This document shows, piece by piece, positions 49,716 through 62,953 of a DNA stretch of 64,000 nucleotides. The notes below the pieces were generated by a model. It was not told where the DNA came from and made no database searches. It was given only the letters and a program-made list of their open reading frames with translations. The stretch covers positions 3,615,501 through 3,679,500 of the forward strand of contig NC_014623.1 in assembly GCF_000165485.1 (NCBI RefSeq), in the 5' to 3' direction. The stretch comes from Stigmatella aurantiaca DW4/3-1 (lineage in GTDB: Bacteria > Myxococcota > Myxococcia > Myxococcales > Myxococcaceae). The stretch's first letter is position 1. Each line of letters starts with the position of its first letter. Made by a program: the position numbers and the translations under genes.

Positions 49716-49796
49716 TTTCTGAGAAGTCTGGAAGTTCTTGGATTTGCGTGCCAAGGTGACAAACCACCCGATGCCAGGCAACCCAAGGACATGATC

Positions 49797-49804
49797 GGCG
49801 ATAA
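49797..49804 (+). promoter_or_regulatory. Possible sigma-28 (FliA-type) -10 element
   Basis: GGCGATAA matches the sigma-28 -10 consensus GCCGATAA at 7 of 8 bases and lies 67 bases before the needle-like gene. The expected TAAA -35 motif is not at the right distance. Mentioned because a FliA-like sigma gene is in the same cluster. Confidence 0.3.
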
Positions 49805-49870: not shown

Positions 49871-50440
49871 ATGAAGATCGACGGAAACATGATGGGCCCC
49901 CGGATGTCCACCAACCTGACGGTGAACAAGCAGACGCCGAACAACGAGTTCGGTCACCGGGTGCAGGCGGGTCTGAACGCCGCCGCGGGCGCCGTGTCCA
50001 GCGGCGTGGGAATGGCCACCAGCATGATCCCGGGCGGGGGCATCGTGTCCGCCGCGGTCTCCTCGGTGAACACCTTTGCCTCGGGCGCGACCGGCTCGGC
50101 GAGCACCCCGTACACCGGTGCGGTCACCGGCGGCGTGACGGGCGGCGTCACCGGCGGCGTGACGGGCGGCGTTCCCTCGGTGAACACCACCGTGGGCGTG
50201 GGCGGCGGGGTGGGGATCCCCGGCACGGCGACCACGGGCGGCCCGAACTACCTGGGCGGCGCCACCGGCAGCGTGGGCAGCGAGTTCAACGGTGAGCTAT
50301 CCAGCATGTTCACCCAGCAGAAGGAACTGCTGAAGCTCCAGACCCAGATGCAGAACGAGCAGCAGCGCTACCAGGCCATCTCCAACGTGCTGAAGTCGCG
50401 CCACGAGTCGGCCAAGAACTCGATCGGCAACATCCGCTAG
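49871..50440 (+). CDS. Probable T3S needle-like or secreted protein
   Basis: A 189-residue protein after a strong GGAGGAAAA site. The N-terminal two thirds are Gly/Val/Thr/Ser-rich and without charge, including four VTGG repeats at residues 85-100 and hydrophobic Ala/Gly helices (AGLNAAAGAVSSGVGMA). The last 50 residues are an amphipathic helix: SMFTQQKELLKLQTQMQNEQ, then RYQAISNVLKSRHESAKNSI and GNIR. That end recalls the C-terminal helix of T3S needle subunits (which typically end like AIIQNFR). A hairpin follows and then a TPR chaperone gene, as expected for a needle or translocator. Needle proteins are usually only about 80 residues, so it could also be a translocator or substrate. Confidence 0.6.
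   Translation: MKIDGNMMGPRMSTNLTVNKQTPNNEFGHRVQAGLNAAAGAVSSGVGMATSMIPGGGIVSAAVSSVNTFASGATGSASTPYTGAVTGGVTGGVTGGVTGGVPSVNTTVGVGGGVGIPGTATTGGPNYLGGATGSVGSEFNGELSSMFTQQKELLKLQTQMQNEQQRYQAISNVLKSRHESAKNSIGNIR
50123..50170 (+). repeat. Four 12-bp tandem repeats encoding VTGG
   Basis: Units alternate between gtcaccggcggc and gtgacgggcggc, so the amino-acid repeat is exact while codons alternate. It lies inside the needle-like gene and is prone to slippage. Confidence 0.8.
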
Positions 50441-50529: not shown

Positions 50530-50964
50530 ATGGCGGAGTCTGCGTCGGAGATCGCGGGCAGTCTGGTTCCCCTGGCCAAGCAGCAGGCCATGGTCTTGCT
50601 GGAGTCCGGCTATGTCTGGATGGACATGGGCAAGTTCGACAAGGCCAAGGACGTCTTCGCGGGTGCCGCCACGTTGATGCCCAAGAGTGAGGTGCCCCAG
50701 TTGGCGCTCGGAGCGCTGGAGTTCGCCCAGGGGCGCCACGACAAGGCCTTGCAGGCCTACCGTGCCGCCCAGCGGCTGGCGCCTCAGTCCTCCCTGCCGC
50801 GCGCGCACGCGGGAGAAGCGCTACTCTTCATGGGCAAGGTGCCGGAGGCGGTCAAGGAACTGAAGGCGGCGATCGATCTGGAGCCGGACAGTGATGGGGC
50901 CCGGCTTGCCCAGGCCCTGATAGATGCCAAGGAGGCGGGGATTCTCCCGCCCGCGAAGAAGTAG
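50530..50964 (+). CDS. TPR protein, T3S chaperone-like (SycD/PscG type)
   Basis: A 144-residue cytoplasmic protein made of about three tetratricopeptide repeats: AMVLLESGYVWMDMGKFDKA, ALGALEFAQGRHDKALQAYR, AGEALLFMGKVPEAVKELKA. Size and repeats match class II T3S chaperones (SycD/LcrH), which hold translocators, and PscG, which holds the needle subunit. Its place right behind the needle-like gene supports a chaperone role for that product. Starts 90 bases after it, beyond a hairpin. The specific client is inferred from position. Confidence 0.8.
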   Translation: MAESASEIAGSLVPLAKQQAMVLLESGYVWMDMGKFDKAKDVFAGAATLMPKSEVPQLALGALEFAQGRHDKALQAYRAAQRLAPQSSLPRAHAGEALLFMGKVPEAVKELKAAIDLEPDSDGARLAQALIDAKEAGILPPAKK

Positions 50965-50997: not shown

Positions 50998-51393
50998 ATG
51001 TCTGTCGGTGGAGTCGGACGAGGGGGCGGTAAGGGCCGGGCCGGTGGGGCGAAGGGTGCCTCTGGCAAGGCACCGGCGGGAGGAGCCAGCTTCGGGGGCA
51101 AGGTCGACAGGACCGAGTCTCTCGTGGGGCCGTCGGGTCTGGTAGGCTCTTCCAATGTTCAGGGAGCCCAGGCTGCGGATCCCATCGCCTCTCAGGCCAT
51201 GGCCATCGCCAAGCAGCTCAAGAACGGGGGCTTCAAGAACAAGGATGAGGCGACACGGCAGCTCGTCGCCGAGGTTCTCAAGGAGAAGCTCCACATGAAG
51301 TCCTCCACGCTATCGACCAAGATCGCAGACGCGCTCCAGGAGGATCCTCGGCTGAACCAGGTTCTTGAGCGGCTGTGGTCAAAGGCCGAGTGA
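50998..51393 (+). CDS. Small protein before the sigma factor, FlgM-like?
   Basis: A 131-residue protein with a Gly/Lys/Ala-rich N-terminus (SVGGVGRGGGKGRAGGAKGA) of the kind seen in T3S-exported proteins, then a helical C-terminus: DPIASQAMAIAKQLKNGGFK, NKDEATRQLVAEVLKEKLHM, LNQVLERLWSKAE. The phrase LKNGGFKNKDEATRQLVAEVL resembles the sigma-binding part of the anti-sigma-28 factor FlgM (LK..I..G.Y.VD...IA..ML). It lies directly before a FliA-like sigma gene, as flgM often pairs with fliA functions. This match is weak and made by eye; it might also be a substrate or an unrelated T3S protein. It shares the phrase VQGAQAA with SctI. Confidence 0.6.
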   Translation: MSVGGVGRGGGKGRAGGAKGASGKAPAGGASFGGKVDRTESLVGPSGLVGSSNVQGAQAADPIASQAMAIAKQLKNGGFKNKDEATRQLVAEVLKEKLHMKSSTLSTKIADALQEDPRLNQVLERLWSKAE

Positions 51394-51400
51394 GCGGCGC

Positions 51401-52234
51401 TTGGGGTTCGGCGACGACAAGAAGGCGATCCTCGAAAAGTACGGCCCGTATGTGAGGTCGCTGGCGGCCACCGTCCGCAAGCAGTTCAACGCCCAGCTGG
51501 AACTCGATGAGCTGGTGTCCTACGGCCAGATCGGGCTCCTGGAGGCCGCTGACCGGTTTGATCCCAAGGTTGGGGCCAACTTCCTCACCTTTGCCCACTA
51601 TCGCATCAAAGGTGCGATCTTTGATGGGTTGAGGAAAATGGGCATCTTGCGCGGTGGGGATGCCCGGTCCGCGTTCGTGGGAGAGCGCGCGGCGGCGTAT
51701 CTGGGAAATCTTTCGGATCGCGAACAAGGGGGAGGCAACCGCGGGGGGTCATTCGACGATGATGTCAATGACATCTCCAACGCCGTTGCGGGGCTGGCCA
51801 TGGTGTTTGCCACCAGCCTCGAGGGAGCGGACAGCGCCGGGTATTCCGACGAGTCCCTGCCGGCCGATCAGCGGTTGGAGATGGAGCAGTTGAAGCGGCG
51901 GGTGAGGGCGGCGATCGAAAGGCTCCCGGACAAGGAGCGCCAGCTGTTGCAGGGGTATTACTTCCAGGGGCGGACCCTGGAAGAGGCGGGCTCGGAGATC
52001 GGGCAATCGAAGAGCTGGGCCTCGCGGCTGCACGCACGGGCCATTGAACGGCTCAAAGAGTTTTTGGATGAGGAGGAAGCTCCTGCTTCTTCCGACGAAC
52101 TAAGGAGGCAGTCACATGGCGGGTCCAATGGCGGGCGTCTCGGCCGCGCAGATCGCTCAGCAGAAGCTGCAGGATCAGGGCGCGCAGCAGGTGAACAAGC
52201 AGGGAGCCTCGAAGTTCGACGGGGTTCTCGCTAA
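51401..52234 (+). CDS. FliA-like (sigma-28 family) sigma factor
   Basis: About 277 residues. Region 2: KYGPYVRSLAATVRKQF, LDELVSYGQIGLLEAADRFD, NFLTFAHYRIKGAIFDGLRK; region 4: IERLPDKERQLLQGYYFQGR, TLEEAGSEIGQSKSWASRLH. Region 3 is poorly kept. This pattern is FliA/WhiG-like rather than ECF. Start uncertain: TTG 51401 follows GAGTGAG and the stop of the previous gene; TTG 51365 would overlap that gene by 29 bases. At the 3' end the frame runs 119 bases into sctI; the last 40 residues are Arg/Gly/Ser-rich and may be a non-conserved tail. It probably directs RNA polymerase to T3S promoters. Confidence 0.82.
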   Translation: MGFGDDKKAILEKYGPYVRSLAATVRKQFNAQLELDELVSYGQIGLLEAADRFDPKVGANFLTFAHYRIKGAIFDGLRKMGILRGGDARSAFVGERAAAYLGNLSDREQGGGNRGGSFDDDVNDISNAVAGLAMVFATSLEGADSAGYSDESLPADQRLEMEQLKRRVRAAIERLPDKERQLLQGYYFQGRTLEEAGSEIGQSKSWASRLHARAIERLKEFLDEEEAPASSDELRRQSHGGSNGGRLGRADRSAEAAGSGRAAGEQAGSLEVRRGSR

Positions 52235-52676
52235 CAAGAGCCAGGCGGCTGGCGGGGCCGAGCAGGTCCAGGGCGCTCAGGCGGCGCAGAAGGCCCAGGC
52301 GGCGCAAGCGGCCCAGCGCGTCGACCAGGTGCGTCAGGTGGAGACCGTCAACAAGACGGAGAAGGCGGCCCTGAACAAGGTCAACGCTTCGGGCAGCGAG
52401 CAGCTCACCTCGCGCGCCGCCGAGCCGGTCACCGCCAAGGCGGAGACCTCGAAGGCCGGCAACATGATGTCCAGTGTGGTCAGCTCGCTGGAGAAGGGCC
52501 AGCTCAACCTCGAGAAGCTCATTCAGCAGGGCTCCTCGGGCAAGCAGTTCTCCAACGGCGAGCTGCTGTCGCTCCAGGCCTCCATGTACAAGTACACCCA
52601 GGAGCTGGACCTGACGAGCAAGGTGGTCGAGAAGGCCACCAGCGGCCTCAAGGACGTCGTCAAGACCCAGGTGTAG
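52116..52676 (+). CDS. sctI: T3S inner-rod protein SctI
   Basis: A 186-residue protein. The N-terminal half is Gln/Ala-rich (AAQKAQAAQAAQRVDQVRQV). The C-terminal 45 residues are the signature of the SctI/YscI/HrpB rod family: FSNGELLSLQASMYKYTQEL, then DLTSKVVEKATSGLKDVV ending KTQV. The rod (adaptor) links the export gate to the needle and is itself exported. AAGGAGG precedes the ATG and lies inside the sigma factor frame. A strong terminator follows, ending the first T3S transcription unit. Confidence 0.85.
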   Translation: MAGPMAGVSAAQIAQQKLQDQGAQQVNKQGASKFDGVLANKSQAAGGAEQVQGAQAAQKAQAAQAAQRVDQVRQVETVNKTEKAALNKVNASGSEQLTSRAAEPVTAKAETSKAGNMMSSVVSSLEKGQLNLEKLIQQGSSGKQFSNGELLSLQASMYKYTQELDLTSKVVEKATSGLKDVVKTQV

Positions 52677-52711: not shown

Positions 52712-52756
52712 GAAGGGCGATTCCTCCTCGCGGAGGGGTCGCCCTTCTTGTTTTCC
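52712..52756 (+). terminator. Rho-independent terminator after sctI
   Basis: A 9-base perfect stem (gaagggcga and tcgcccttc) with an inner 5-base stem (cctcc, loop tcgc, ggagg), followed by TTGTTTTC. The clearest intrinsic terminator of the window. Confidence 0.85.
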
Positions 52757-52805
52757 GGGGCCCTGTTGGAACGGAACGGCCACGCCGCTAAGCTAGGCGC
52801 CGCAC

Positions 52806-53615
52806 ATGACTCACCGATCGCACGCGCGCGTCATTCCCCTTCTGGCCCTGATCTTCGTCACGGGCTGTTCCATTGATCTTCAGCATGGCCTGACAGAGCA
52901 GGATGCCAACGAGATCTACGTCCTGCTCAGCAAGAATGGGATCAGCGCCGTCAAGCTGAAGGAGGGGGAAGGCCAGGACGTCCAGTTCTCCATCCAAGTG
53001 CCCAAGGCGGATGCGGCCCAGGCGGCGGAGCTGCTACGGGCCAACTCGCTGCCACGCCCGATGGAGAAGGGCTTCAACCACTTCGCCAAGGGCAGCATGG
53101 TGCCCACCGCCGCCGAAGAGCGCGCGATGATGCTCAAGGCGATCGCGGGCGAGGTCTCCAACGCGCTCAACAAGATCGATGGCGTGCTCGAGTCCAACGT
53201 CATCGTCAACATCCCCGAGAACAATGATCTCACCCAGCCGGAGAACAAGCCGATGCCCTCCGCCTCGGTGATGATCCGCTACCGCCCCTCGCTGGAGGGC
53301 AAGGCGCCCGTCGAGGAGCCCCAGGTCAAGCAGTTCGTGGCCTCCGCGGTTCAGGAGCTCAAGCCCGAGGCGGTCACCGTGCTGTTGACGCCGGCGCTCG
53401 TGTCTTCGGCGGAGACCAGCCCCGAGAGCCGGCTCCAGGATGTGTTCGGCATGCGGATGACGGCGGCCAGTGCCAGCCAGTTCCGGATCCTGGTCGGGGT
53501 CGTCTCCCTCATCGTGCTGGCCATGATTGGGTTGTCGGCCTGGGTCTTCATGAGAGGAGGTTCGTCCAGCGGCGCCTCGGTGCGGGCCGCTCGTCCGCGT
53601 CCTCCCCAGGCCTGA
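52806..53615 (+). CDS. sctJ: T3S inner-membrane ring lipoprotein SctJ
   Basis: A 269-residue lipoprotein (lipobox VTGC, Cys21). The family core is clear: LTEQDANEIYVLLSKNGISA, PRPMEKGFNHFAKGSMVPTA, EERAMMLKAIAGEVSNALNK, GVLESNVIVNIPENNDL, SASVMIRYRP. A C-terminal membrane helix at about 225-245 (ILVGVVSLIVLAMIGLSAWV) and a short basic tail complete it. It forms the periplasmic face of the basal-body ring and is homologous to the first half of flagellar FliF. It opens the second T3S unit, right after the terminator. Confidence 0.95.
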   Translation: MTHRSHARVIPLLALIFVTGCSIDLQHGLTEQDANEIYVLLSKNGISAVKLKEGEGQDVQFSIQVPKADAAQAAELLRANSLPRPMEKGFNHFAKGSMVPTAAEERAMMLKAIAGEVSNALNKIDGVLESNVIVNIPENNDLTQPENKPMPSASVMIRYRPSLEGKAPVEEPQVKQFVASAVQELKPEAVTVLLTPALVSSAETSPESRLQDVFGMRMTAASASQFRILVGVVSLIVLAMIGLSAWVFMRGGSSSGASVRAARPRPPQA

Positions 53616-53666: not shown

Positions 53667-55358
53667 TTGGATCAATTCTTCACCTCGCTCAACAAGCGCC
53701 AGACCATGCTGCTGCTGACCGCCATCACCTTCGGCGGCCAGGAGGGCGTGTCCGCGCTCGAGCACCTTTCCCAGGAGCAGGCCGAACTGCTCGGGCATCG
53801 CGCGCAGGGAATCATGCAGATTCCCCGCGAGAAGCGGATCCCCTTGCTGGTGCAGGAGCTCAAGCGGCTGGTGAAGGACCGGCGTGGCCAGTTGTGGAGC
53901 GCTGACCCGGAGCGGCTGGCCCTGCTGCTGCGGCGGGAGCGCGGGGCGCTGGTGGAGGTGGTGTTGCGTGCCCTGCCCGCGGGGCTCGCGGACGCGATGC
54001 GCTCCCACGTTCCGCAGCGGCCGGTGAAGCTGGCGCGCGAGGTGCGGCCCCAGATTCTGGACATCGTCCGGTGGAAGCTCGAGGAAGGGCTGACGCGCAA
54101 CGCGGGCCCCCAGGCGAGCCTCAAGTTCACCGACGTGTTGCTGTTGCAGCCCCGGGAGCTGCTCACCGTGTGCGATCGGCTGGGGGCGCGGGTGCTGGGC
54201 CCGGCGCTGGCGGGGTTGCCCGAGGCGCTCCGGGATGGGCTCATCGCCGTGCTGCCGCCCGATCAAAAGCAGCTGGCCACCAAGTCCATCACCGCCAACG
54301 CTCCGCGCAAGCTGTCCGAAGAGGAAGCCCAGGAGCAGCTTGCCGCGCATGATGGTTTGAAGAACCTCTCGGGTGCCATCCGCAGCGCGGGTGTCCAGCG
54401 GCTGGCCCGTGCGTGCGTGTCTCAGTCGGCGGAGTTCGCCGCGCGCATGCTGGAGCGGCACCGGGGCGATTTTGGCAGCTTGCTGGCGAAGTGGGTCCGC
54501 GATGAACGCTCCAAGCCGGCCTCCCGCACCGCGGATGGTGGCCGAGCGGACATCCTGGCCGACATGGAGCGGTTGGCGGTCCGGGGCCTCATCGAGCGTC
54601 CGATGCGGCTTACCCCTCAGCGCCCGGTCTTGAACCCGCCTCCTGGCCGTCCGGCCGCGCCCCCTGCGAGTCGCGAGCCCTCCCGGGTGTCCGCGGGCCG
54701 CGCGGGTGCGGTGCCGGCGCCGCCCGCGCGAAGGGACCCCATGGCGGAGCGCGAGGCGCGGCGTGCGGGTGCCGTGTCCTCCGGGCCCGCGGATGCCTCG
54801 GTGCGCAGGGGCGACCCCATGGCCGAGCGCGCCGCCCGGCGAGCCGGAGCCCTTTCGGCCCGCGAGCCTTCCCGGGTCTCCCCGGGGGCCCGGGAGGCGG
54901 GGGGCGCCCGCCGAGATTCCTTGGCCTCCATGCCCGCGCCTTCACGAGATGCGGAGCGAGGCGCGGCCCGGAGCAGTTCCGCGGAGCCCGCGGACGTCTC
55001 GCGCGCCAGCTCGCGGCTTCCCCCTCCCAGGGCGGGGACCCGGCGGGAAGGCGGGCGTTCAGAAGTGGCCCCCGCGCGCATCCCTCCGCGCATCGCGGAC
55101 CGGTCCAGCGGCCCCGCGGACCCCGAAGGGTCCCGGGTCATTAGCTCGCCGGGCATCCGCAGTGTCAGCAGGACCGGACTCCGGGCGGCGCTGCCCGATG
55201 AGCCGGAGCGGCCTCCCCGCGTGCTTTCTGGCAAACCTTCGGCGTCCCCTCGGACGGCTGATTCCTCGCAAGGGGAGGGGAAGAGCGTGCAGCGTCGTCC
55301 CCCGTCTTCCCCGCCTCCAGGGAATTCCGGGCGTGGACCTCGTGGCGGATCGCGCTAG
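53667..55358 (+). CDS. FliG-like protein in the SctK position
   Basis: A 563-residue protein from TTG 53667 (AGGTGA upstream). Three helical blocks look like FliG domains: LLTAITFGGQEGVSALEHLS (N), PERLALLLRRERGALVEVVL and RALPAGLADAMRSHVP (middle), FTDVLLLQPRELLTVCDRLG and PALAGLPEALRDGLIAVLPP (C; compare F-D-L...LALKG....LR....N). From about residue 310 the protein is a long, low-complexity Arg/Ser/Pro/Ala tail with related phrases (DPMAEREARRAGAVSSG, DPMAERAARRAGALSA). Injectisomes have SctK between SctJ and SctL; flagella have FliG after FliF. The FliG likeness is judged by eye and needs a profile search. Confidence 0.65.
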   Translation: MDQFFTSLNKRQTMLLLTAITFGGQEGVSALEHLSQEQAELLGHRAQGIMQIPREKRIPLLVQELKRLVKDRRGQLWSADPERLALLLRRERGALVEVVLRALPAGLADAMRSHVPQRPVKLAREVRPQILDIVRWKLEEGLTRNAGPQASLKFTDVLLLQPRELLTVCDRLGARVLGPALAGLPEALRDGLIAVLPPDQKQLATKSITANAPRKLSEEEAQEQLAAHDGLKNLSGAIRSAGVQRLARACVSQSAEFAARMLERHRGDFGSLLAKWVRDERSKPASRTADGGRADILADMERLAVRGLIERPMRLTPQRPVLNPPPGRPAAPPASREPSRVSAGRAGAVPAPPARRDPMAEREARRAGAVSSGPADASVRRGDPMAERAARRAGALSAREPSRVSPGAREAGGARRDSLASMPAPSRDAERGAARSSSAEPADVSRASSRLPPPRAGTRREGGRSEVAPARIPPRIADRSSGPADPEGSRVISSPGIRSVSRTGLRAALPDEPERPPRVLSGKPSASPRTADSSQGEGKSVQRRPPSSPPPGNSGRGPRGGSR

Positions 55359-55382: not shown

Positions 55383-56048
55383 ATGGCGATCGGCAAAGTA
55401 ATCAAAGGTGACGTGGCCCCGGAACCCGTCCCCGAGCGGTCCGCGCCGCGCCCTGCACGCGCGGGCGTGATGAACGCCGAGATCTTCGAGGCGCGTCAGT
55501 CTGCCCAAGGCATCGTCGAGGAGGCCCAGCGGGAGAGGGAACGCATCCTCGCGGAGGCCCAGCGGGAGCGGGAGGACGTGCTGGCCAAGGCGCGCGAGCA
55601 GGGGCGCCAGGAAGGCATGGCCCAGGCCACGGAACTGCTCTTGCGCGCCAAGATGCAGGCGGGGGAGATGCTCGCTGGCCAGGAGAAGGACGTCATTGCC
55701 CTGGCGTGCCGGATCGCCGAGAAAATCATTGGCCGTGACATCGAGCGTCAGCCGGAGCTCTTGGTGGACATGTGCGCCTCGGCCATCGAGCAGCTGCGCA
55801 ATGCGCGCGCGATGGTGCTCCGGGTCCACCCGAAGACGGCGCAGGTGCTGCGCTCGCGCAAGCCCGAGCTGATGGAACTCATTGGCCGCGCGGTGGACCT
55901 CGCCATCCGCGAGGACCAGGACGTGGCGCCCGTTGGCTGTATCGTCCAGACGGAGTTCGGCACGGTGGACGCACAGTTGCCGACCCAGTTCGAGATGCTT
56001 CAGAACGTGCTGCTGCCCGATCTCAGCAAGACGGAAGGACCGGCCTAG
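55383..56048 (+). CDS. sctL: T3S ATPase regulator SctL (FliH/YscL family)
   Basis: A 221-residue stalk protein. The N-terminal half is a charged coiled coil (AQGIVEEAQRERERILAEAQ, REREDVLAKAREQGRQEGMA), the C-terminal half is the conserved ATPase-binding domain (LACRIAEKIIGRDIERQPEL, RVHPKTAQVL, DVAPVGCIVQTEFGTVDAQL). SctL forms the peripheral stalk that tethers the SctN ATPase to the sorting platform and restrains its activity. It ends 3 bases before sctN, in tight operon order. Confidence 0.93.
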   Translation: MAIGKVIKGDVAPEPVPERSAPRPARAGVMNAEIFEARQSAQGIVEEAQRERERILAEAQREREDVLAKAREQGRQEGMAQATELLLRAKMQAGEMLAGQEKDVIALACRIAEKIIGRDIERQPELLVDMCASAIEQLRNARAMVLRVHPKTAQVLRSRKPELMELIGRAVDLAIREDQDVAPVGCIVQTEFGTVDAQLPTQFEMLQNVLLPDLSKTEGPA

Positions 56049-56051
56049 GCC

Positions 56052-57362
56052 ATGGCGATTGACCTGTCGCGGTACTACGCACTGCTGAAGGACGCCTCGC
56101 TGGTCCGCGTGCGCGGGCGTGTCACCGAGCTCACCGGTCTGGTCATCAAGGCCAGCGTGCCCAACGTGCGCGTGGGCGAGGTGGTCTACATCAAGAGCCG
56201 CGTCCGCGGTCAGGTGAAGGCGGAAGTGGTGGGGTTCCAGGGCGACGAGGTGATGCTCATGCCCCTGGGCGAGCTGTACGGCATTGGCCCGGACAGCGAG
56301 GTGATTCCCAGCGGCAAGCCGCTCACCATCAAGTGCGGGGAAGGGCTGCTGGGGCGCGTGCTCGGGGGCACGGGCGAGCCCATCGATGGCAAGCCCCTGC
56401 CGGATGACCTCATCGACTGGTCGGTGGACCGGGATTGCCCGGACCCCTTCACGCGCATGCGCATCGAGCACCCGCTGCCGCTGGGGGTGCGCTGCATCGA
56501 TGGGCTGCTGACCGTGGGCGAGGGGCAGCGCGTGGGGCTCTTCGCAGGCTCCGGCGTCGGTAAGTCCACGCTCATGGGGCAGATTGCCCGGAACACCAAG
56601 GCGGAACTCAACGTCATCGCGCTGATCGGCGAGCGTGGCCGCGAGGTGCGTGAGTTCATCGAGGACGCACTCGGCGAGGAGGGGCTCAGGCGCTCCGTGC
56701 TGGTCTGCGCCACCTCGGACCAGCCCAGCCTCGTGCGCTTGAAGGCCGCCTACGTGGCCACCGCCATCGCGGAGTACTTCCGGGAGCGGGGCGGCAACGT
56801 GATGTTCATGCTGGACACTGTGACGCGTTTGGCACGTGCCCAGCGTGAAATCGGCTTGGCCGTCGGTGAGCCCCCGGCTCGCCAGGGCTACCCGCCCAGC
56901 GTCTTCTCCATGCTGCCGCGCATCCTCGAGCGCACGGGCAACTCGGCCAAGGGCAAGTGCACCGCCATCTACACCTGCTTGGTGGCCGGTGGTGACATGG
57001 AAGAGCCCATCGCCGACGAGGTCCGCGGTATTCTCGACGGTCACTTCATCCTCAACCGTGCCCTGGGCGAGCGCAACCAGTGGCCCGCCATGGACGTGCT
57101 GGCCAGCCTCTCCCGTGTGATGAGCGGCATCGTCTCCAAGGACCACAAGAAGGCGGCCGGCAAGCTGCGCGAAACACTCTCGACGTACGAGAAACAGCGC
57201 GACCTGATCCTCCTGGGCGCCTACCAGTACGGCACCGACCCCCGGACGGACTACGCCATCGACAAGTACGACGCCATCATCGACTACCTCAAGCAGGACA
57301 CCCACTCGAACTCGACCTTCGAAGAGACGGTCAACGGGCTGGTCGGTCTCTTCGAGGACTGA
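56052..57362 (+). CDS. sctN: T3S ATPase SctN
   Basis: A 436-residue hexameric ATPase homologous to FliI and F1-beta. Walker A AGSGVGKS at 165-172 (K171), GERGREVREF, Walker B region NVMFMLDTVTR, and the PSVFSMLPRILERTG segment typical of the SctN/FliI group. The N-terminal beta-barrel and C-terminal helical domains are complete, and length is normal. It strips chaperones from substrates and unfolds them for export. Located between SctL (3-base gap) and SctO. Confidence 0.97.
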   Translation: MAIDLSRYYALLKDASLVRVRGRVTELTGLVIKASVPNVRVGEVVYIKSRVRGQVKAEVVGFQGDEVMLMPLGELYGIGPDSEVIPSGKPLTIKCGEGLLGRVLGGTGEPIDGKPLPDDLIDWSVDRDCPDPFTRMRIEHPLPLGVRCIDGLLTVGEGQRVGLFAGSGVGKSTLMGQIARNTKAELNVIALIGERGREVREFIEDALGEEGLRRSVLVCATSDQPSLVRLKAAYVATAIAEYFRERGGNVMFMLDTVTRLARAQREIGLAVGEPPARQGYPPSVFSMLPRILERTGNSAKGKCTAIYTCLVAGGDMEEPIADEVRGILDGHFILNRALGERNQWPAMDVLASLSRVMSGIVSKDHKKAAGKLRETLSTYEKQRDLILLGAYQYGTDPRTDYAIDKYDAIIDYLKQDTHSNSTFEETVNGLVGLFED

Positions 57363-57398
57363 CGCGGGCGGGGTTTTCCGGGTTAGGATGGTGCTCCC

Positions 57399-57887
57399 AT
57401 GCCCCCGTACCGGTTAGAGACCCTCCTGGAGATGCGCGCCCGCGCCAAGGAGGAGGCGGAGCAGGCCTTCTCCGCGGCCATCAAGGCGCTGGAGAAGGAG
57501 AAGGCGGAACTCAAGCGTCTGGAGGACGAGCTCACGCGGCGCAAGGCCGAGCGCAAGGCCAAGGTCATGGCCTACCTCAACGAGGTGATGGCCAAGGGCG
57601 CCGGCATCAACGGCATGAACATGATGGGCCGCTTCGAGCAGCGCCTGAAGGACGAGGAGGCGCAGGTGGCGCTCGACATCGAGCGCCAGCGCGAGGTGGT
57701 GAAGGTGGCCGAGAGGACCGTCGAGCAGAAGCGCCAGCAGATGGCGGAGGCCGCCAAGGAGCTCAAAGCCATCGAGAAGCACAAGGAGACCTGGCAGAAG
57801 CAGATCAAATACGAGCGGCAGCAGCGCGAGGAGCTGAACCAGGAAGAGATTGGCAGTGCCTTGTTCCTCGCCCGTCAGCGCAAGTAA
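57399..57887 (+). CDS. sctO: T3S central stalk SctO (YscO/FliJ-like)
   Basis: A 162-residue protein that is almost wholly two long antiparallel charged helices (RARAKEEAEQAFSAAIKALE, LKRLEDELTRRKAERKAKVM, KVAERTVEQKRQQMAEAAKE). Start PPYRLETLLEMR is FliJ-like. In this position it is the rotor-like stalk that couples the SctN ATPase to the export gate SctV. A short loop with Gly/Asn/Met (GINGMNMMG) separates the helices. Confidence 0.88.
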   Translation: MPPYRLETLLEMRARAKEEAEQAFSAAIKALEKEKAELKRLEDELTRRKAERKAKVMAYLNEVMAKGAGINGMNMMGRFEQRLKDEEAQVALDIERQREVVKVAERTVEQKRQQMAEAAKELKAIEKHKETWQKQIKYERQQREELNQEEIGSALFLARQRK

Positions 57888-57917
57888 TCTTTCCTCCTTT
57901 TCTCCAGGTGTGAAGAG

Positions 57918-58928
57918 ATGAGCCGAGTCGAAGACGATCGCGACGCAGAGCGGATTGCCCAGCGCCTCATCCAGGAGCGGCAGCTCGCCGAGGCCAAGGG
58001 CAAGCAGCGCAAAGAGGGGGAGACGGCCTTCTCGAAGCTGGTCCAGCAGTCCCAGACGGAGAAGGGGCAGACCCAGCAGAAGCAGGAGACCAAGCAGACC
58101 TTCGCCCAGGCCACGCTCGCCCGGCTCATGAAGGAGGCGGGGACGAAGGAGGCCGGGGCGGAGATGCGCCAGCAGGAGGGCGCCAACACGAAGCAGTCCG
58201 GGCTGCGTCAGGACACCACCCGCGCCCAGGGCCGCCAGGAGGCGAAGTCCCTCGACGAGCGCGTGTTGCTGGGCCAATCCGATGAGGCCCGGCAGACCTC
58301 CGAGGGCCGTCAGACAGAGTCGTCCCAGGGCGGGGCGGCCAGTGCCAGCCGCAGGCACGACGAGGGCGTCTCCGAGGCCCGGACCGAGGCCCGCCACACG
58401 GAGGGCAAGGCGGAGAGTGACTCGGAGGCGGACGAGAAGAGTTCATTGTCCCGGAGCGAGGGGCGCGCGGGCCAGAAGGGCTCGCTCAAGGCGGACGCGG
58501 ACGCTGGCGGTGGTCAGGGCGGTGGGGGCAAGGACAAGAAGGAAGGCGGGGGCGAGGCCGCGGCGGCGGCGGGCTTCCGCTTCAACCCCGCGCTGATGGC
58601 CCCGGTCCCCGTGGCCAAGCCCAAGCCCAACACGGGCTCGGAGCGGATGCGGGCCATTGCCAACGAGATCGCCCAGAAGATCGTCGAGCGGGCGCGCGTG
58701 GGCACCAATGGCGCCGGGCAGGCGGAGTTCCAGATCGATCTGCGCAGCAACGTGCTCAGCGGACTGTCCATCAAGCTCTCCGCCAAGAACGGGAAGATCC
58801 AGGCCGTCTTCAGCGGCAGCGACCGTGACGTGCTCAAGATGATCGAAGAGCAGAAAGAGGGCCTCAAGAGCGCCCTGACAGGCCGTGGCCTGAAGCTCGA
58901 GGATCTGCGCTTCGAGGTTCGCGCATGA
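57918..58928 (+). CDS. sctP: SctP-like / FliK-like length-control protein
   Basis: A 336-residue protein. Residues 1-220 are highly charged and Gln/Glu/Ser/Gly-rich, hence disordered (KQRKEGETAFSKLVQQSQTE). The C-terminal 90 residues form the FliK/SctP substrate-switch domain: QAEFQIDLRSNVLSGLSIKL, SAKNGKIQAVFSGSDRDVLK, MIEEQKEGLKSALTGRGLKL. The domain is closer to flagellar FliK (LxPxxLGxLxVxL-type) than to most SctP. It should measure needle or rod length and switch the gate SctU to late substrates. Its last four bases overlap the start of sctQ. Confidence 0.8.
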   Translation: MSRVEDDRDAERIAQRLIQERQLAEAKGKQRKEGETAFSKLVQQSQTEKGQTQQKQETKQTFAQATLARLMKEAGTKEAGAEMRQQEGANTKQSGLRQDTTRAQGRQEAKSLDERVLLGQSDEARQTSEGRQTESSQGGAASASRRHDEGVSEARTEARHTEGKAESDSEADEKSSLSRSEGRAGQKGSLKADADAGGGQGGGGKDKKEGGGEAAAAAGFRFNPALMAPVPVAKPKPNTGSERMRAIANEIAQKIVERARVGTNGAGQAEFQIDLRSNVLSGLSIKLSAKNGKIQAVFSGSDRDVLKMIEEQKEGLKSALTGRGLKLEDLRFEVRA

Positions 58929-60250
58929 GTCTCAGCCGGGATGATGGGCCCGGAACCTATGATCGGACGATGCTGGTGGACTTGCGCCAGATCCGTCCGA
59001 CCCGGCCCTGGAAGCCGTTCTATTTTCAGAACCTGGAGCGGGTGAGCCGCACTCAGGTGGGGCTGTCGCTGCAAGTGCAGCGCATGCTGCCGCCCGCGAG
59101 CGCGGCCGAGCCCTTGTATGCCCGGCTCAAGGCGCTCTTTGACGCCGAATCCCGCGTGAATCTGGTGTCCGTGCAGATCCGCCCCTTCCAGGAGCTTCAA
59201 CGCTACCTGGGAGACCCCTCCTTCCTGGCGGTGCTCGCCCCGGGCGCGCTCAAGGAGCGGGTGGTGCTGGAGGTGGAGCTGCCGCTGGCCCACAACCTGG
59301 TGGACATGCTGCTGGGCGGGGTGGGCGAGACCGTGGGCTTGCGGCCCTTGACCGACATCGAGGAGGGCGTGATGAGCTTCGTCGTCCTCGAGGCACTCAA
59401 GGCCCTCGCGCCCGCGCTGGACCCCAGCCTGCCCAAGCTCCGCCTGGAGACGGTGGCCCGTGGGGCGGAGGAAGTGGCGGACCGGCTGGGGGAGGAGGAT
59501 CGGGTGGTGGTCATCCACCTGAACGCCTCGCTGGGCCCCCATACCGGGCTGGTGCGTCTGGTCATCCCCACCGGGGTGGTGGGGGCGGCCGAGTTGGCGC
59601 AGGCCGCCGCGGAGCGGCGCTCCCAGGTGAACACGGATCTCCAGCTGAACCGGTGGATGCTGTCCACGGTGCGCACCTGGTTGCGCGCGGAGATTGGCCA
59701 GGCGGAGATCGCCAGCCAGGACTTGGCCTACATCCGCGTCAAGGACGTGGTGCTGCTGGATGCGCTGACCGCCCGGCCGGACCGGGGCGAGGAGGGCACC
59801 GCGGTGCTCCGCGTGGGCATGGGCAGCTCCCGGGTGGAGGCGGAGGTCTTCCTCGAGGACGGCCAGTACAAGGCGCGTGTCACGTCCATCGTCATTGGCG
59901 AGCCGGCCTTTCAGCGCGCCGTTCCCCCATCGCCCGAGGGGGAAGAGGCTTTTACCCAGCCGGAGACCGATGGGTCTTCGGAGTCGGAAGGACAGTCCTT
60001 GGACACGATGAACAAGTCGGAGGGCAGCGACCTGCTGGCCGACATCCCGCTGCAAATCGCCGTGGAGCTTGCCCGGGTGCCCGTCACCGCGGACGAGGTG
60101 GTGTCGCTGAGGGTGGGCCACGTCCTCGAATTGCACCGGTCTCCGGGAGAGCCGGTGGAGTTGTCGGTCAACGGCAAGGTGGTGGCCCGGGGTGAGCTGG
60201 TGGAGGTGGAAGGCCAGCTCGGCGTGCGGGTGCTCTCCCTGGCCGGGTAG
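58925..60250 (+). CDS. sctQ: T3S sorting-platform protein SctQ (FliM/FliN-like)
   Basis: A 441-residue protein. The N-terminal two thirds resemble the FliM middle domain (LPLAHNLVDMLLGGVGETVG, LRPLTDIEEGVMSFVVLEAL), then a first SPOA-like domain (RTWLRAEIGQAEIASQDLAY). After a Glu/Ser linker (SEGSDLLADIP) the C-terminal SPOA domain is clear: LQIAVELARVPVTADEVVSL, RVGHVLELHRSPGEPVELSV, NGKVVARGELVEVEGQLGVR. The order is that of a FliM-FliN fusion, as in SctQ. It forms the cytoplasmic sorting platform with SctL and the SctK/FliG-like protein. ATGA overlap with sctP. Confidence 0.9.
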   Translation: MSLSRDDGPGTYDRTMLVDLRQIRPTRPWKPFYFQNLERVSRTQVGLSLQVQRMLPPASAAEPLYARLKALFDAESRVNLVSVQIRPFQELQRYLGDPSFLAVLAPGALKERVVLEVELPLAHNLVDMLLGGVGETVGLRPLTDIEEGVMSFVVLEALKALAPALDPSLPKLRLETVARGAEEVADRLGEEDRVVVIHLNASLGPHTGLVRLVIPTGVVGAAELAQAAAERRSQVNTDLQLNRWMLSTVRTWLRAEIGQAEIASQDLAYIRVKDVVLLDALTARPDRGEEGTAVLRVGMGSSRVEAEVFLEDGQYKARVTSIVIGEPAFQRAVPPSPEGEEAFTQPETDGSSESEGQSLDTMNKSEGSDLLADIPLQIAVELARVPVTADEVVSLRVGHVLELHRSPGEPVELSVNGKVVARGELVEVEGQLGVRVLSLAG

Positions 60251-60300
60251 CCCTGGCGGGGGGGCGGGCAAGGGGGCACCCCCCGAATCCAAGGGCGGCC

Positions 60301-61014
60301 ATGGCGGTCCCGCCTCCGGATGGACTAGCCTTCGTCCCATTCATGGCGGTTTTCCCTGTGTCGAACGTGCGCCCCCTCGTGGCCTGTGGCTGGTTGTTGA
60401 TCGCGCCATCGCTCGCCGCGGCGCAGGCGGTCTCCTCTCCTTCGCCTGCGGTCCCGGCGGAGGCGGCCCCCGCTCCGCCCGCGGAGTCCTCGCCCGCGCC
60501 TGGCGTGCTCGCGCCTGGGGCTCCGGCCGCGTCTTCTCAACCCACGCCCCTGGCCCCGGCCCCGGCCACATCCCCTTCGGCGGCGGGCGGGGATGAGCTG
60601 CCGGACCCATTCGCCACCGACGCGAGCCCGGAGGAGCCCGAGAGCATGGGGTGGACCCTGGTGCGCACCGTGCTGCTGCTGGCCGCGGTGGTGGCCTCCA
60701 TCTACCTGACGCTCAACGTGGGGCTGCGCCGGTTGATGGGGCTGCAGGGCGTGCCGGTGGGGCGTCCCTCCGTGGTCGCGGTCCTGGAACGCTTGCCGCT
60801 GGACCAGCGCCGGACGCTCTTCGTGTTGAAGGCGGCGGATGAGTATCTCCTGGTGGGGGGCGGGGAGGGGGGCCTCCAGCTCTTGTCCAAGCTCGACACC
60901 GAGGCCGTCGAGCGCATTCGCGCCGAGCGCCCGCAGACGCCCGCCATCCCCTTGAGCCCCTTCCTTCAAAAGCTCCTTTCCCGCCGCACCGGCTCCACGC
61001 CGCCGCGTTCCTGA
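60301..61014 (+). CDS. FliO-like membrane protein
   Basis: A 237-residue protein. The first start (ATG 60301, AAGGGCGG upstream) gives a signal peptide ending SLAAA-QA; starts at 60343 or GTG 60358 are possible. A Pro/Ala/Ser-rich periplasmic part of about 75 residues is followed by one membrane helix (TLVRTVLLLAAVVASIYLTL) and a cytoplasmic domain of FliO type: VVAVLERLPLDQRRTLFVLK, ADEYLLVGGGEGGLQLLSKL. FliO helps assemble the FliP/SctR ring in flagella; injectisomes generally do without it. It sits right before sctR, as fliO sits before fliP. Confidence 0.75.
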   Translation: MAVPPPDGLAFVPFMAVFPVSNVRPLVACGWLLIAPSLAAAQAVSSPSPAVPAEAAPAPPAESSPAPGVLAPGAPAASSQPTPLAPAPATSPSAAGGDELPDPFATDASPEEPESMGWTLVRTVLLLAAVVASIYLTLNVGLRRLMGLQGVPVGRPSVVAVLERLPLDQRRTLFVLKAADEYLLVGGGEGGLQLLSKLDTEAVERIRAERPQTPAIPLSPFLQKLLSRRTGSTPPRS

Positions 61015-61024
61015 AGACTGCCCC

Positions 61025-61858
61025 GTGAGACCTTCGTCCGTCCGACCGCTCCTGTCGTCTCGAATCATCCCCTGGCTCTTCGCCACCACGGTCGCGCTTC
61101 AGCCCGCGGTGGCGCTGGCGCAGCGCCGCCGTGGGGGCGGGGACGACCCCATTCCCGACAGCGTCGTCCAGGCCGCGACCAGCAACGAGTCCTTTGCCTC
61201 GCGGCCGCTCATCCTCATCCTGGCGCTGGCGGCCCTGTCGCTCGTGCCCTTCATGCTGATGATGGTGACGAGCTTCGTGAAGATCTCGGTGGTGCTCTCC
61301 ATCGTCCGCTCGGCGCTGGGCACCCAGCAGATTCCGCCCACGCAGGTCATCACCGGCCTGGCCGTCATCCTCACCGTCTACATCATGGCCCCGGTGGGGC
61401 AGGAGATGTACAAGGCGGCGAAGGTGGACATCTGGGCCAAGGGCCCCAGCCTGCTGTCCTCGGAGACGGTGGGCACGCTGCTCGAAGCCGCCGACCGCTC
61501 GAAGGAGCCGCTGCGCGACTTCCTGGTGAAGAAGGTCAAGAACAAGGACCGGGCCTTGTTCTTCCACCTCGCCAAGAAGATGCGCAAGGCGGAGGACCGC
61601 AAGGACATCGGGGACCGGGACTTCATGATCATCATCCCGGCCTTCGTGGTGTCCGAGCTGAAGGAGGCCTTCCAGATCGGCTTCCTGCTCTTCGTGCCCT
61701 TCATCGTCATCGACATGGTGGTGGCCAACATCCTGCTCGCGCTCGGCATGCACATGTTGTCGCCGACCACCATCTCCATGCCGTTCAAGCTCTTGCTCTT
61801 CGTGCTCGTGGACGGCTGGTATCTCATCGCCAAGGGCCTGGTCGTCGGCTACCTGTAG
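61025..61858 (+). CDS. sctR: T3S export gate SctR (FliP/YscR) with signal peptide
   Basis: A 277-residue inner-membrane protein from GTG 61025. It has an N-terminal signal-like segment ending VALA-QRRR, a feature of flagellar FliP rather than of most SctR. Conserved motifs: LVPFMLMMVTSFVKISVVLS, RSALGTQQIPPTQVITGLAV, FMIIIPAFVVSELKEAFQIG, HMLSPTTISMPFKLLLFVLV, DGW. Five copies form the core of the export gate with SctS and SctT. It is followed by sctS after 10 bases. Confidence 0.95.
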   Translation: MRPSSVRPLLSSRIIPWLFATTVALQPAVALAQRRRGGGDDPIPDSVVQAATSNESFASRPLILILALAALSLVPFMLMMVTSFVKISVVLSIVRSALGTQQIPPTQVITGLAVILTVYIMAPVGQEMYKAAKVDIWAKGPSLLSSETVGTLLEAADRSKEPLRDFLVKKVKNKDRALFFHLAKKMRKAEDRKDIGDRDFMIIIPAFVVSELKEAFQIGFLLFVPFIVIDMVVANILLALGMHMLSPTTISMPFKLLLFVLVDGWYLIAKGLVVGYL

Positions 61859-61868
61859 GAGACGCTCC

Positions 61869-62135
61869 ATGCACCAACTGTCCGTCATTACCCAGCAGGC
61901 GTTGTTCCTGGTGCTCATCGTCTCGGCGCCGCCGGTGCTCATCAGCCTGGTGGTGGGCTTCATCATCGCCTTGTTCCAGGCCACCACGCAGATTCAGGAG
62001 CAGACGCTGACGTTTGCTCCCAAGGTCGTCATCGTCTTCATCGTGTTGGCCATGGCGGGGCCGTGGATTGGCCACCAGCTCCTGCGCTTCACCTTCCACG
62101 TCTTCGACCGGTTCCCGGCCCTCATCAACGGATGA
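61869..62135 (+). CDS. sctS: T3S export gate SctS (FliQ/YscS)
   Basis: An 88-residue protein of two membrane helices: ALFLVLIVSAPPVLISLVVG and KVVIVFIVLAMAGPWIGHQL, joined by the loop IALFQATTQIQEQTLTFAPK, the FliQ/SctS signature. Length is standard. Four copies complete the gate with SctR and SctT. Its stop overlaps the sctT start (ATGA). Confidence 0.95.
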   Translation: MHQLSVITQQALFLVLIVSAPPVLISLVVGFIIALFQATTQIQEQTLTFAPKVVIVFIVLAMAGPWIGHQLLRFTFHVFDRFPALING

Positions 62136-62953
62136 ACAACGTCCAGGAAGCCTTCACCCGGCTGATCGAACAGTCGAACCTATCGCTGATGATCTTCACG
62201 ATAGGGCTGCTGATGTGCCGGATCATGCCCGTGCTCATCTTCTCCCCGTTCCTGGGGGGCGAGGTGGTTCCGCCCGAGGTGCGCATGGGCGTGGGCGTCA
62301 CCCTGTCGCTGGTGCTCTTCCCCTCGGTGGCGGACCGGATGGGGGCGCTGCCCACCAGCGCGCTGCCCTACATCGCGCTGCTGCTCAAGGAGGTCTTCAT
62401 CGGCGTCTCGCTGGCGTTCATCGTCAACATCATCTTCGATGCGGCGCGGGTGGCGGGCACCTTGGTCGACACCATGGCGGGCAGTAACAACGCCCAGCTC
62501 TACGTGCCCCAGCTGGGCCAGCAGGTGTCGCTCTTCTCCAGCCTCAAGGTGCAGCTGTCCGTGGTGCTGTTCCTCACGCTGGACGGCCACCACATCGTCA
62601 TCTCGGCCTTGGCGGACAGCTTCGCCATCGTCCCGCTCGACAGCTTCCCGAAGTTCAGCAAGGGGACCTGGGCCTTCTTCGAAGTGATCAGCCGTGCCTT
62701 CGCCAACCTGTTGGCGATCAGCCTCTCGTTGGCCGCGCCGCAGATGCTGTCCGCCTTCCTCACGGACCTGGCCATGGGCGCCGTCAACCGCGTCGCGCCC
62801 AACCTTCAGGTCTTCTTCATCGCCATGGCCATCAAGCCCATGGTGTCGGTGCTCATCGCGGCGCTGGCCCTGCACATGCTCATCGGACGGTTCCAGTCGG
62901 AGTTCGTCCACATGCTCGAGCTCCTCCTTCGCGCCGTGCACTTGCTGGCCTGA
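62132..62953 (+). CDS. sctT: T3S export gate SctT (FliR/YscT)
   Basis: A 273-residue membrane protein with about six helices. Start ATG 62132 overlaps the sctS stop by four bases. Signature stretches: LLMCRIMPVLIFSPFLGGEV, LLKEVFIGVSLAFIVNIIFD, AARVAGTLVDTMAGSNNAQL, FLTLDGHHIVISALADSFAI, APQMLSAFLTDLAMGAVNRV. One copy closes the SctR5-S4-T1 gate. The segment AGSNNAQLYVPQLGQQVS corresponds to the plug-near loop of FliR. Confidence 0.95.
   Translation: MNNVQEAFTRLIEQSNLSLMIFTIGLLMCRIMPVLIFSPFLGGEVVPPEVRMGVGVTLSLVLFPSVADRMGALPTSALPYIALLLKEVFIGVSLAFIVNIIFDAARVAGTLVDTMAGSNNAQLYVPQLGQQVSLFSSLKVQLSVVLFLTLDGHHIVISALADSFAIVPLDSFPKFSKGTWAFFEVISRAFANLLAISLSLAAPQMLSAFLTDLAMGAVNRVAPNLQVFFIAMAIKPMVSVLIAALALHMLIGRFQSEFVHMLELLLRAVHLLA

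What the first reader, a model, noticed from the sequence alone, without database searches (positions are those of the whole stretch)
50998..52234. Possible FlgM/FliA-type checkpoint inside a type III injectisome cluster
A FliA-like sigma factor lies between T3S genes, directly after a small Gly-rich protein whose helical part resembles the sigma-binding stretch of FlgM. In flagella, FlgM is exported through the completed T3S channel, which frees FliA. A pair of this kind in a non-flagellar system would link injectisome completion to late gene expression, and would be a relic of flagellar origin.
Basis: inference. Interest (0 to 1): 0.75.

Follow-up and report, generated by a model that had tools for sequence, protein, structure and literature searches.

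The report
Sigma factor for predatory secretion genes
A predatory soil bacterium carries, inside its type III secretion gene cluster, a relative of the flagellar sigma factor that appears to switch on part of that cluster and a scattered set of likely prey-digesting secreted enzymes; whether the small protein beside it is its exported brake, as FlgM is in flagella, remains open.

Summary
The pair is real: a 131-aa protein (P3, 50998-51393) and a FliA/WhiG-like sigma factor (conserved start TTG 51401) inside a myxobacterial non-flagellar type III cluster. P3 is not a recognisable FlgM: no Pfam match at P3 in any of 145 genomes, and profile comparison is at decoy level. The predicted link to gene expression fares better. 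A promoter-like motif, GCAAC-N16-CGATAA (sigma-28-like -10, altered -35), precedes the operon GLY-TPR-P3-sigma-sctI; its core is exact in 42 of 51 loci. This genome has 18 sites against 2 for a backward control. In 90 of 90 genomes of the order with the sigma, sites exceed the control (1031 against 115); in 55 without it, 63 against 37 (median 0). Sites sit before gene starts more often than random positions (30 of 41 against 17%). Many products have disordered, signal-less N-termini with amidase, protease, nuclease or DUF1521 domains: candidate effectors of T3SS*, which a 2023 review calls unknown. P3 keeps an FxxxPhi motif resembling the signal of early type III substrates and is tightly coupled to the sigma gene. 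An exported anti-sigma role is plausible, unproven; adjacency is broken in three distant genomes.

The parts
49778..49804 (+). promoter-like motif GCAAC-N16-CGATAA upstream of the operon
   Evidence: site G000:C1:3665278-3665304; conserved upstream of the same gene in relatives
49871..50440 (+). first gene of the operon (called GLY here): Gly-rich, no Pfam match; carries FGHRV (FxxxPhi)
   Evidence: relatives in 115 of 145 genomes of the order at E<=0.001, weak ones included
50530..50964 (+). TPR protein, LcrH/SycD-like chaperone (TIGR02552 3.6e-14, below cut-off)
50998..51393 (+). P3, the 131-aa protein: disordered Gly/Ala/Lys/Arg-rich N-terminus, four predicted helices (62-130); candidate exported regulator or early substrate
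51091..51105 (+). P3 residues 32-36, FGGKV, an FxxxPhi motif like the gate-recognition motif of early type III substrates
   Evidence: F32 and V36 invariant in 25 close rows; FxxxPhi in 57 of 59 non-redundant P3 sequences
51401..52234 (+). sigma factor, FliA/WhiG-like, regions 2 and 4 conserved, canonical region 3 replaced; TTG start inferred from conservation
52116..52676 (+). sctI-like inner rod gene, last gene of the operon, overlaps the sigma ORF; carries FDGVL (FxxxPhi)
   Evidence: PF17001 8.3e-4 and NF038054 0.013, both below cut-off
52712..52757 (+). intrinsic-terminator-like hairpin (16 pairs) and T-rich tail between sctI and sctJ
   Evidence: a hairpin of -17.9 kcal/mol or lower with T-run in 39 of 39 loci with a short sctI-sctJ gap
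52806..53615 (+). sctJ
   Evidence: TIGR02544 2e-43
53667..55358 (+). protein in the sctK position with a FliG_C match
   Evidence: PF01706 6.6e-7, 30 bits, cut-off 23.3
55383..58928 (+). sctL, sctN, sctO (YscO-like), sctP (FliK hook-domain match just below cut-off)
58925..62953 (+). sctQ (FliM and FliN_C matches), FliO-like protein (60301-61014), sctR, sctT

Best explanation
The sigma is a dedicated, FliA/WhiG-related sigma factor of the myxobacterial non-flagellar T3SS. It recognises promoters of the form GCAAC-N16-CGATAA, i.e. a sigma-28 -10 element with sigma-28 spacing but an altered -35. It transcribes its own operon (GLY-TPR-P3-sigma-sctI, ending in a terminator before the basal-body gene sctJ) and, in this genome, up to some 15 scattered genes, many of which look like type III substrates without signal peptides, including peptidoglycan, protein and DNA hydrolases that would digest prey. 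This mirrors the flagellar layout, in which FliA transcribes late, exported products. P3 is most likely itself an exported early substrate; coupled translation with the sigma makes it the best candidate in the operon for an export-sensitive regulator. Shown by sequence: the motif, its enrichment, its genome-wide association with the sigma, its positions, operon and terminator conservation. Inferred: that this sigma reads the motif, that the products are exported, and any regulatory role of P3 (I put P3 as an anti-sigma at about 0.3).
For: Motif conserved upstream of GLY: core CAAC-N14-18-CGATAA exact in 42 of 51 long-locus copies, including five from other families of the phylum; a near variant in 8 of the other 9; 0 of 2 paralogous short loci that lack the sigma. 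18 sites in the own genome against 2 for the backward pattern. In the order, 90 of 90 genomes with the sigma have more sites than control, 1031 against 115; 55 without it have 63 against 37, median 0. Sites precede a closed ORF start within 100 nt in 30 of 41 cases in three genomes, against 16.6% of 4000 random positions. Products in the own genome: PG_binding+Amidase_2, thermolysin M4, two S8 subtilases, Endonuclease I, DUF1521, PG_binding+CHAP-like (below cut-off); an amidase again in G118. S+T+P richer in the first 60 residues than in 21 window proteins (36 products, p 0.0013). Region 2.3/2.4 resembles flagellar FliA while the -35 helix (SKSWASRLHARA) is invariant and different (10 sigmas against 12 FliA). 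Conserved hairpin terminator after sctI. P3-sigma coupling in 48 of 48 loci.
Against: No binding or transcription data. Ten of 55 genomes without the sigma have 3-8 sites; four of them (G088, G124, G128, G138) are 78-90% complete and carry a YscO-like gene, so a missed sigma is possible, but G009, G010, G037, G041, G140 and G141 are not explained that way. Eight sigma-positive genomes have only 1-3 sites. Of 18 own sites, one has no convincing gene (L138), one lies inside a 606-aa frame (L144), and four or five precede proteins with a hydrophobic N-terminus (L133, L134, L140, L147, L131 borderline), unlike type III substrates. The -35 GCAAC also resembles some ECF-type -35 elements (recalled). 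Genomes in the comparison are related, so counts are not independent. In G182, G184 and G185 the sigma lies on another contig than P3 and has no motif nearby. The P3-sigma AlphaFold2 model has pTM 0.31.
Confidence: 0.78

Rival explanations
1. P3 is an early exported assembly or structural substrate of the T3SS (a counterpart by position of the secreted proteins encoded between needle/chaperone genes and sctI in other systems), with no effect on the sigma. The sigma regulon stands without any anti-sigma partner here.
For: P3 sits between a TPR chaperone gene and sctI, shares an FxxxPhi motif with GLY and sctI, is in an operon of likely exported proteins, and in three of five distant genomes stays with the TPR gene while the sigma is elsewhere. 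No FlgM match.
Against: P3 and the sigma are present or absent together in the order (89 and 90 of 145) and also in the five distant genomes followed, and both are missing from the two paralogous short loci looked at, so P3 is not a general part of such machines.
Confidence: 0.42
2. P3 is an exported anti-sigma factor, FlgM-like in function: it holds the sigma until the secretion channel works, is then exported, and frees the sigma.
For: Translational coupling in 48 of 48 loci, strict co-occurrence, FxxxPhi motif, disordered N-terminus and helical C-terminus as in FlgM, weak colinear hhalign pieces, and a sigma-28-type regulon of cargo genes.
Against: No profile or fold match to FlgM; gene separation in three distant genomes; the canonical sigma region 3, part of the FlgM-bound surface in the flagellar complex (recalled), is replaced.
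Confidence: 0.3
3. The motif is read by another sigma factor (for example an ECF type) that controls the T3SS operon and its cargo; the T3SS sigma is only one of its targets.
For: The -35 half GCAAC(T) resembles ECF -35 boxes (recalled); some genomes without the T3SS sigma have 3-8 sites; no motif next to the relocated sigma in G182, G184, G185.
Against: The -10 CGATAA and the spacing fit sigma-28 promoters (recalled consensus TAAA-N15-GCCGATAA); site number follows the T3SS sigma in 90 of 90 genomes.
Confidence: 0.13
4. The cluster is a decaying relic and the pair has no function.
For: Older annotation as a relic, reported in Abby and Rocha 2012 (PMC3459982, section 9 read).
Against: Conservation of P3, sigma, motif and terminator across families; T3SS* is needed for prey lysis in M. 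xanthus (PMC12075869, passages).
Confidence: 0.02

Closest known systems
Flagellar FliA (sigma-28) / FlgM checkpoint
   Same: FliA/WhiG-like sigma inside a type III locus, sigma-28-like -10 element, a regulon of likely exported late products, a small exported-looking protein coupled to the sigma
   Different: no flagellum genes in this genome's FlgM search, -35 helix and -35 box differ, canonical region 3 replaced, P3 is not a FlgM homologue by sequence; anti-sigma function not shown
Myxobacterial needleless T3SS* (mxan_2434-2464) / 'Myxo' long NF-T3SS locus
   Same: same kind of locus: sctI, J, L, N, Q, R, T, LcrH-like chaperone, found across the Myxococcaceae-like genomes; Myxococcus xanthus AM003 (L064) has GLY-TPR-P3-sigma-sctI-sctJ and the motif
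   Different: the papers seen do not mention a sigma factor or promoter class for it (word 'sigma': 0 occurrences in PMC12075869 and PMC10433427); correspondence to the MXAN numbers is inferred, not checked gene by gene
WhiG / RsiG (Streptomyces sigma-28-type sigma with a non-FlgM anti-sigma)
   Same: FliA/WhiG-family sigma outside flagella; WhiG chains are among the solved matches
   Different: no sign of RsiG in P3; different biology
SctH/YopR-type early secreted proteins encoded before sctI (recalled)
   Same: gene position between a chaperone and sctI, small helical exported protein
   Different: no sequence match seen in the PDB profile search with P3; not compared directly

Membership tests
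FlgM (PF04316) | profile match to FlgM | tested here: not met
   no match at P3: own genome, order of 145 genomes at E<=0.1, while 28 genomes have FlgM over the cut-off elsewhere; Pfam and NCBIfam scans of P3
FlgM (PF04316) | profile-profile similarity to FlgM of relatives | tested here: not met
   hhalign probability 7%, score 21.1; 1 of 60 column-shuffled profiles scores as high; SctL scores 20.5 against P3 21.2
FlgM (PF04316) | disordered N-terminus and helical C-terminus | tested here: met
   AlphaFold2 on P3 alone: residues 14-59 pLDDT under 50, helices 62-75, 82-97, 103-114, 117-130; mean pLDDT only 55
FlgM (PF04316) | binds its sigma factor | tested here: inconclusive
   model of a read-through P3-sigma chain: pTM 0.31, no coordinates or PAE available
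FlgM (PF04316) | exported through the T3SS | not testable with these tools
   only indirect: FxxxPhi in 57 of 59 P3 sequences
FliA/WhiG sigma factors | best match among sigma families, regions 2 and 4 | tested here: met
   TIGR02479 6.4e-32 first of 76 families; PF04542 and PF04545 over cut-off; 6pmi FliA first in PDB
FliA/WhiG sigma factors | score over the curated cut-off of TIGR02479 | tested here: not met
   111.1 bits against 189.6
FliA/WhiG sigma factors | canonical region 3 | tested here: not met
   no Sigma70_r3 match; stretch differs from 12 flagellar FliA of the order
FliA/WhiG sigma factors | promoter TAAA-N15-GCCGATAA | tested here: not met
   -10 part found (CGATAA), -35 part differs; TAAA-N14-16-GCCGATAA has 0 sites in 12 genomes, flagellated relatives included
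Myxobacterial long NF-T3SS (T3SS*) | sctJ, L, N, Q, R, T, U, V and rod protein in one region without secretin or needle match | tested here: inconclusive
   sctI, J, L, N, O, P, Q, R, T by profile; sctU and sctV read by eye from ORFs; secretin, needle and sctD not searched for

The most novel reading that the evidence does not exclude
A flagellum-type checkpoint survives in a non-flagellar, prey-killing type III system: P3 is an exported anti-sigma, unrelated in sequence to FlgM today, that ties production of prey-digesting effectors to a working secretion channel. The promoter motif then gives, for the first time in this system, a genome-wide list of candidate T3SS* effectors in each of 90 genomes.
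Probability: 0.3. Interest if true: 0.9.

Novelty: new variant of a known kind. Interest (0 to 1): 0.78.

Why it matters
The effectors by which the myxobacterial T3SS* lyses prey are described as unknown (PMC10433427, passages; PMC12075869, passages). A promoter motif tied to the sigma factor encoded inside the T3SS locus turns that question into a short list of genes per genome (18 sites here, 11 and 12 in two other genomes), with lytic domains among them. It also offers a test case for the idea that non-flagellar type III systems descend from flagella (Abby and Rocha 2012), since a FliA-type sigma controlling exported products would be a regulatory, not only structural, trace of that descent.

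Tried and rejected
FlgM homology of P3: Pfam, NCBIfam, PHROGs, PDB profile search, hhalign with shuffled, reversed and real-family decoys: nothing above noise. Fold search of the P3 model: no match with E<=0.001. Fold search of the read-through model returned sigma chains, which says nothing about P3. AlphaFold2 of the read-through pair: uninformative. Literature: nine paper searches; none of the listings showed a sigma factor or FlgM-like protein of the myxobacterial T3SS, but listings are capped (search 103 found 200 papers and listed 10) and Thiery et al. 2022 (Cell Rep) is not held, so I cannot say that it is not in print.

Rows dropped: L112 (same contig as L076) and L121 (no GLY in the held DNA); the three GLY sites, L138 and L144; sites in 87 of the 90 sigma-positive genomes were counted but their downstream genes not examined; one of six distant P3 matches (G170, E 0.003) was not followed. 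The first pick of downstream genes by frame and third-position GC gave a frame at 38 of 41 sites, partly by choice of start; the stricter count with control is 30 of 41.

Full report
What is there. The window lies in a 10,260,756-base single-contig genome of an unnamed myxobacterium; the length fits Stigmatella aurantiaca DW4/3-1 as I recall it, unchecked. From 49871 the + strand reads GLY (my name; Gly-rich, no Pfam match), a TPR protein close to LcrH/SycD chaperones, P3 (131 aa), the sigma factor, sctI-like, sctJ, a protein with a FliG_C match, sctL, sctN, sctO, sctP, sctQ with FliM and FliN matches, a FliO-like protein, sctR and sctT; sctU and, past the window, sctV were read by eye. The sigma starts at TTG 51401: in 48 of 48 loci compared an in-frame TTG, GTG or ATG follows the P3 stop within 5-35 nt. 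Such close packing suggests translational coupling.

Is P3 a FlgM? By sequence, no. PF04316 has no match in this genome. In the order of 145 genomes it finds FlgM over the cut-off in 28, and none of its listed matches lies at P3. Several of those genomes, such as G053, G087 and G136, carry both a FlgM elsewhere and P3. I built a FlgM profile from those relatives (27 rows used). hhalign against P3 gives two short colinear pieces, probability 7%, pairwise E 0.005; one of 60 shuffled P3 profiles scores as high and SctL nearly so. AlphaFold2 predicts a disordered first half and four helices (mean pLDDT 55), with no fold match at E<=0.001. A read-through P3-sigma chain gave pTM 0.31, which neither supports nor excludes binding.

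The promoter. Aligning the DNA upstream of GLY in 27 relatives and the window showed a nearly invariant block: GCAAC, 16 or 17 bases, CGATAA. The -10 half and the spacing match sigma-28 promoters, TAAA-N15-GCCGATAA (consensus recalled); the -35 half differs. Accordingly, the sigma keeps the region 2.3/2.4 sequence of flagellar FliA but has an invariant, different -35 helix (10 T3SS sigmas against 12 flagellar FliA). The core CAAC-N14-18-CGATAA stands within 300 nt upstream of GLY in 42 of 51 long loci and as a near variant in 8 of the other 9; it is absent in 2 of 2 short loci. These loci include many close relatives, but also five from other families of the phylum.

Does the motif go with the sigma? 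In the own genome GCAAC-N15-18-CGATAA has 18 sites, its backward form 2. Across the order, the 90 genomes with the sigma have 1031 sites against 115 backward, more than control in each; the 55 without it have 63 against 37, median 0. Within the same family, G042, G086, G092, G122 and G123 lack the sigma and have no site. Against this, ten genomes without the sigma have 3-8 sites, and eight with it have only 1-3. The genomes share ancestry, so the Mann-Whitney value (1e-21) overstates the evidence.

What follows the sites. I examined 41 sites in three genomes (18 own, 11 in G118, 12 in G059). A frame of at least 60 codons with high third-position GC, closed upstream and starting within 100 nt, follows 30 of 41, against 16.6% of 4000 random positions. 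In the own genome the products include an amidase with peptidoglycan-binding domain (Amidase_2 1e-39), a peptidoglycan-binding protein with a CHAP-like stretch below cut-off, a thermolysin-type M4 protease with P-domain, two subtilases, an Endonuclease I, and a DUF1521 protein just downstream of sctU. DUF1521 occurs in type III-secreted NopE proteins (PMC6506597, search listing only). G118 has an amidase of the same build; G059 an annexin-repeat protein; most others match no Pfam family. The first 60 residues are richer in Ser, Thr and Pro than those of 21 window proteins (36 products; p 0.0013), and 31 of 36 lack a hydrophobic N-terminus by a crude test, against 17 of 21. Four or five own products do look Sec-exported and one site lies inside a gene, so some sites are chance or belong to something else.

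The operon. A strong hairpin with T-run follows sctI in the window and in 39 of 39 loci with a short sctI-sctJ gap (no shuffled control for the relatives). In four held loci (two of them the same contig) sctJ is 1.5-2.4 kb away. So GLY-TPR-P3-sigma-sctI is one unit, separate from the basal-body genes. In two paralogous short loci (G035, G122) GLY and sctI occur with no TPR, P3 or sigma between them.

P3 in that light. P3 has FGGKV at residues 32-36; FxxxPhi is kept in 57 of 59 non-redundant sequences. GLY (FGHRV), sctI (FDGVL) and small regulon products (FGSLV in L142, FGALV in L168) have it too, read by eye. Early type III substrates dock at FlhB/SctU by a short hydrophobic gate-recognition motif (PMC10936197, passages; the FxxxPhi form is recalled). 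P3 therefore looks like an early substrate. A profile of 19 P3 sequences finds relatives in six genomes outside the order among the 195 of the phylum searched. In the five followed, P3 follows the TPR gene each time; the sigma is adjacent in two, and in G182, G184 and G185 it lies on another contig. Presence stays linked, adjacency does not. That weakens, but does not remove, the anti-sigma reading.

Known context. The locus is of the type called T3SS* in M. xanthus (mxan_2434-2464), recruited at prey contact and needed for prey lysis (PMC12075869, passages). Its effectors were called unknown in 2023 (PMC10433427, passages). Abby and Rocha place the Myxo systems at the base of non-flagellar T3SS and state that they lack FliG, among others (PMC3459982, section 9); the FliG_C and FliO matches here bear on that. 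I saw no mention of a sigma factor for this system in what I could search (nine searches, capped listings).

Verdict. The finding points to something real and interesting, though not for the reason given. The sigma and its regulon are well supported by sequence (0.78). P3 as an exported anti-sigma stays a hypothesis (0.3), P3 as an early substrate without sigma control is somewhat likelier (0.42).

Noticed in passing
window 53667-55358, 58925-60250, 60301-61014: FliG_C (6.6e-7), FliM/FliN_C and FliO (3.7e-9) matches in a non-flagellar T3SS; Abby and Rocha 2012 list FliG among the missing parts.
   Followed up: no
L128, window coordinates about 68186-70289: Four near-identical small tandem ORFs (MSLNGIVNSVAGGVRGN...) between the DUF1521 gene and sctV, possibly repeated secreted or filament subunits.
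   Followed up: no
window 49871-50440: GLY lies beside an LcrH-like chaperone and its C-terminal helix looks needle- or filament-like by eye; the label needleless may deserve a check. It has a paralogue in the short T3SS locus.
   Followed up: partly
L199 4599-5072 (G050): A second, separate match to the C-terminal part of the P3 profile (7.9e-8), frame uncertain.
   Followed up: no
L139 and L164: A short conserved product (MWIEAIVMPR...) follows a motif site in both the own genome and G118 but has no substrate-like leader.
   Followed up: no
L195 3398, L196 5226, L198 6742: In distant genomes a further motif copy lies directly before sctI (L195, L196) or before P3 (L198), so the operon has been split there.
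   Followed up: partly
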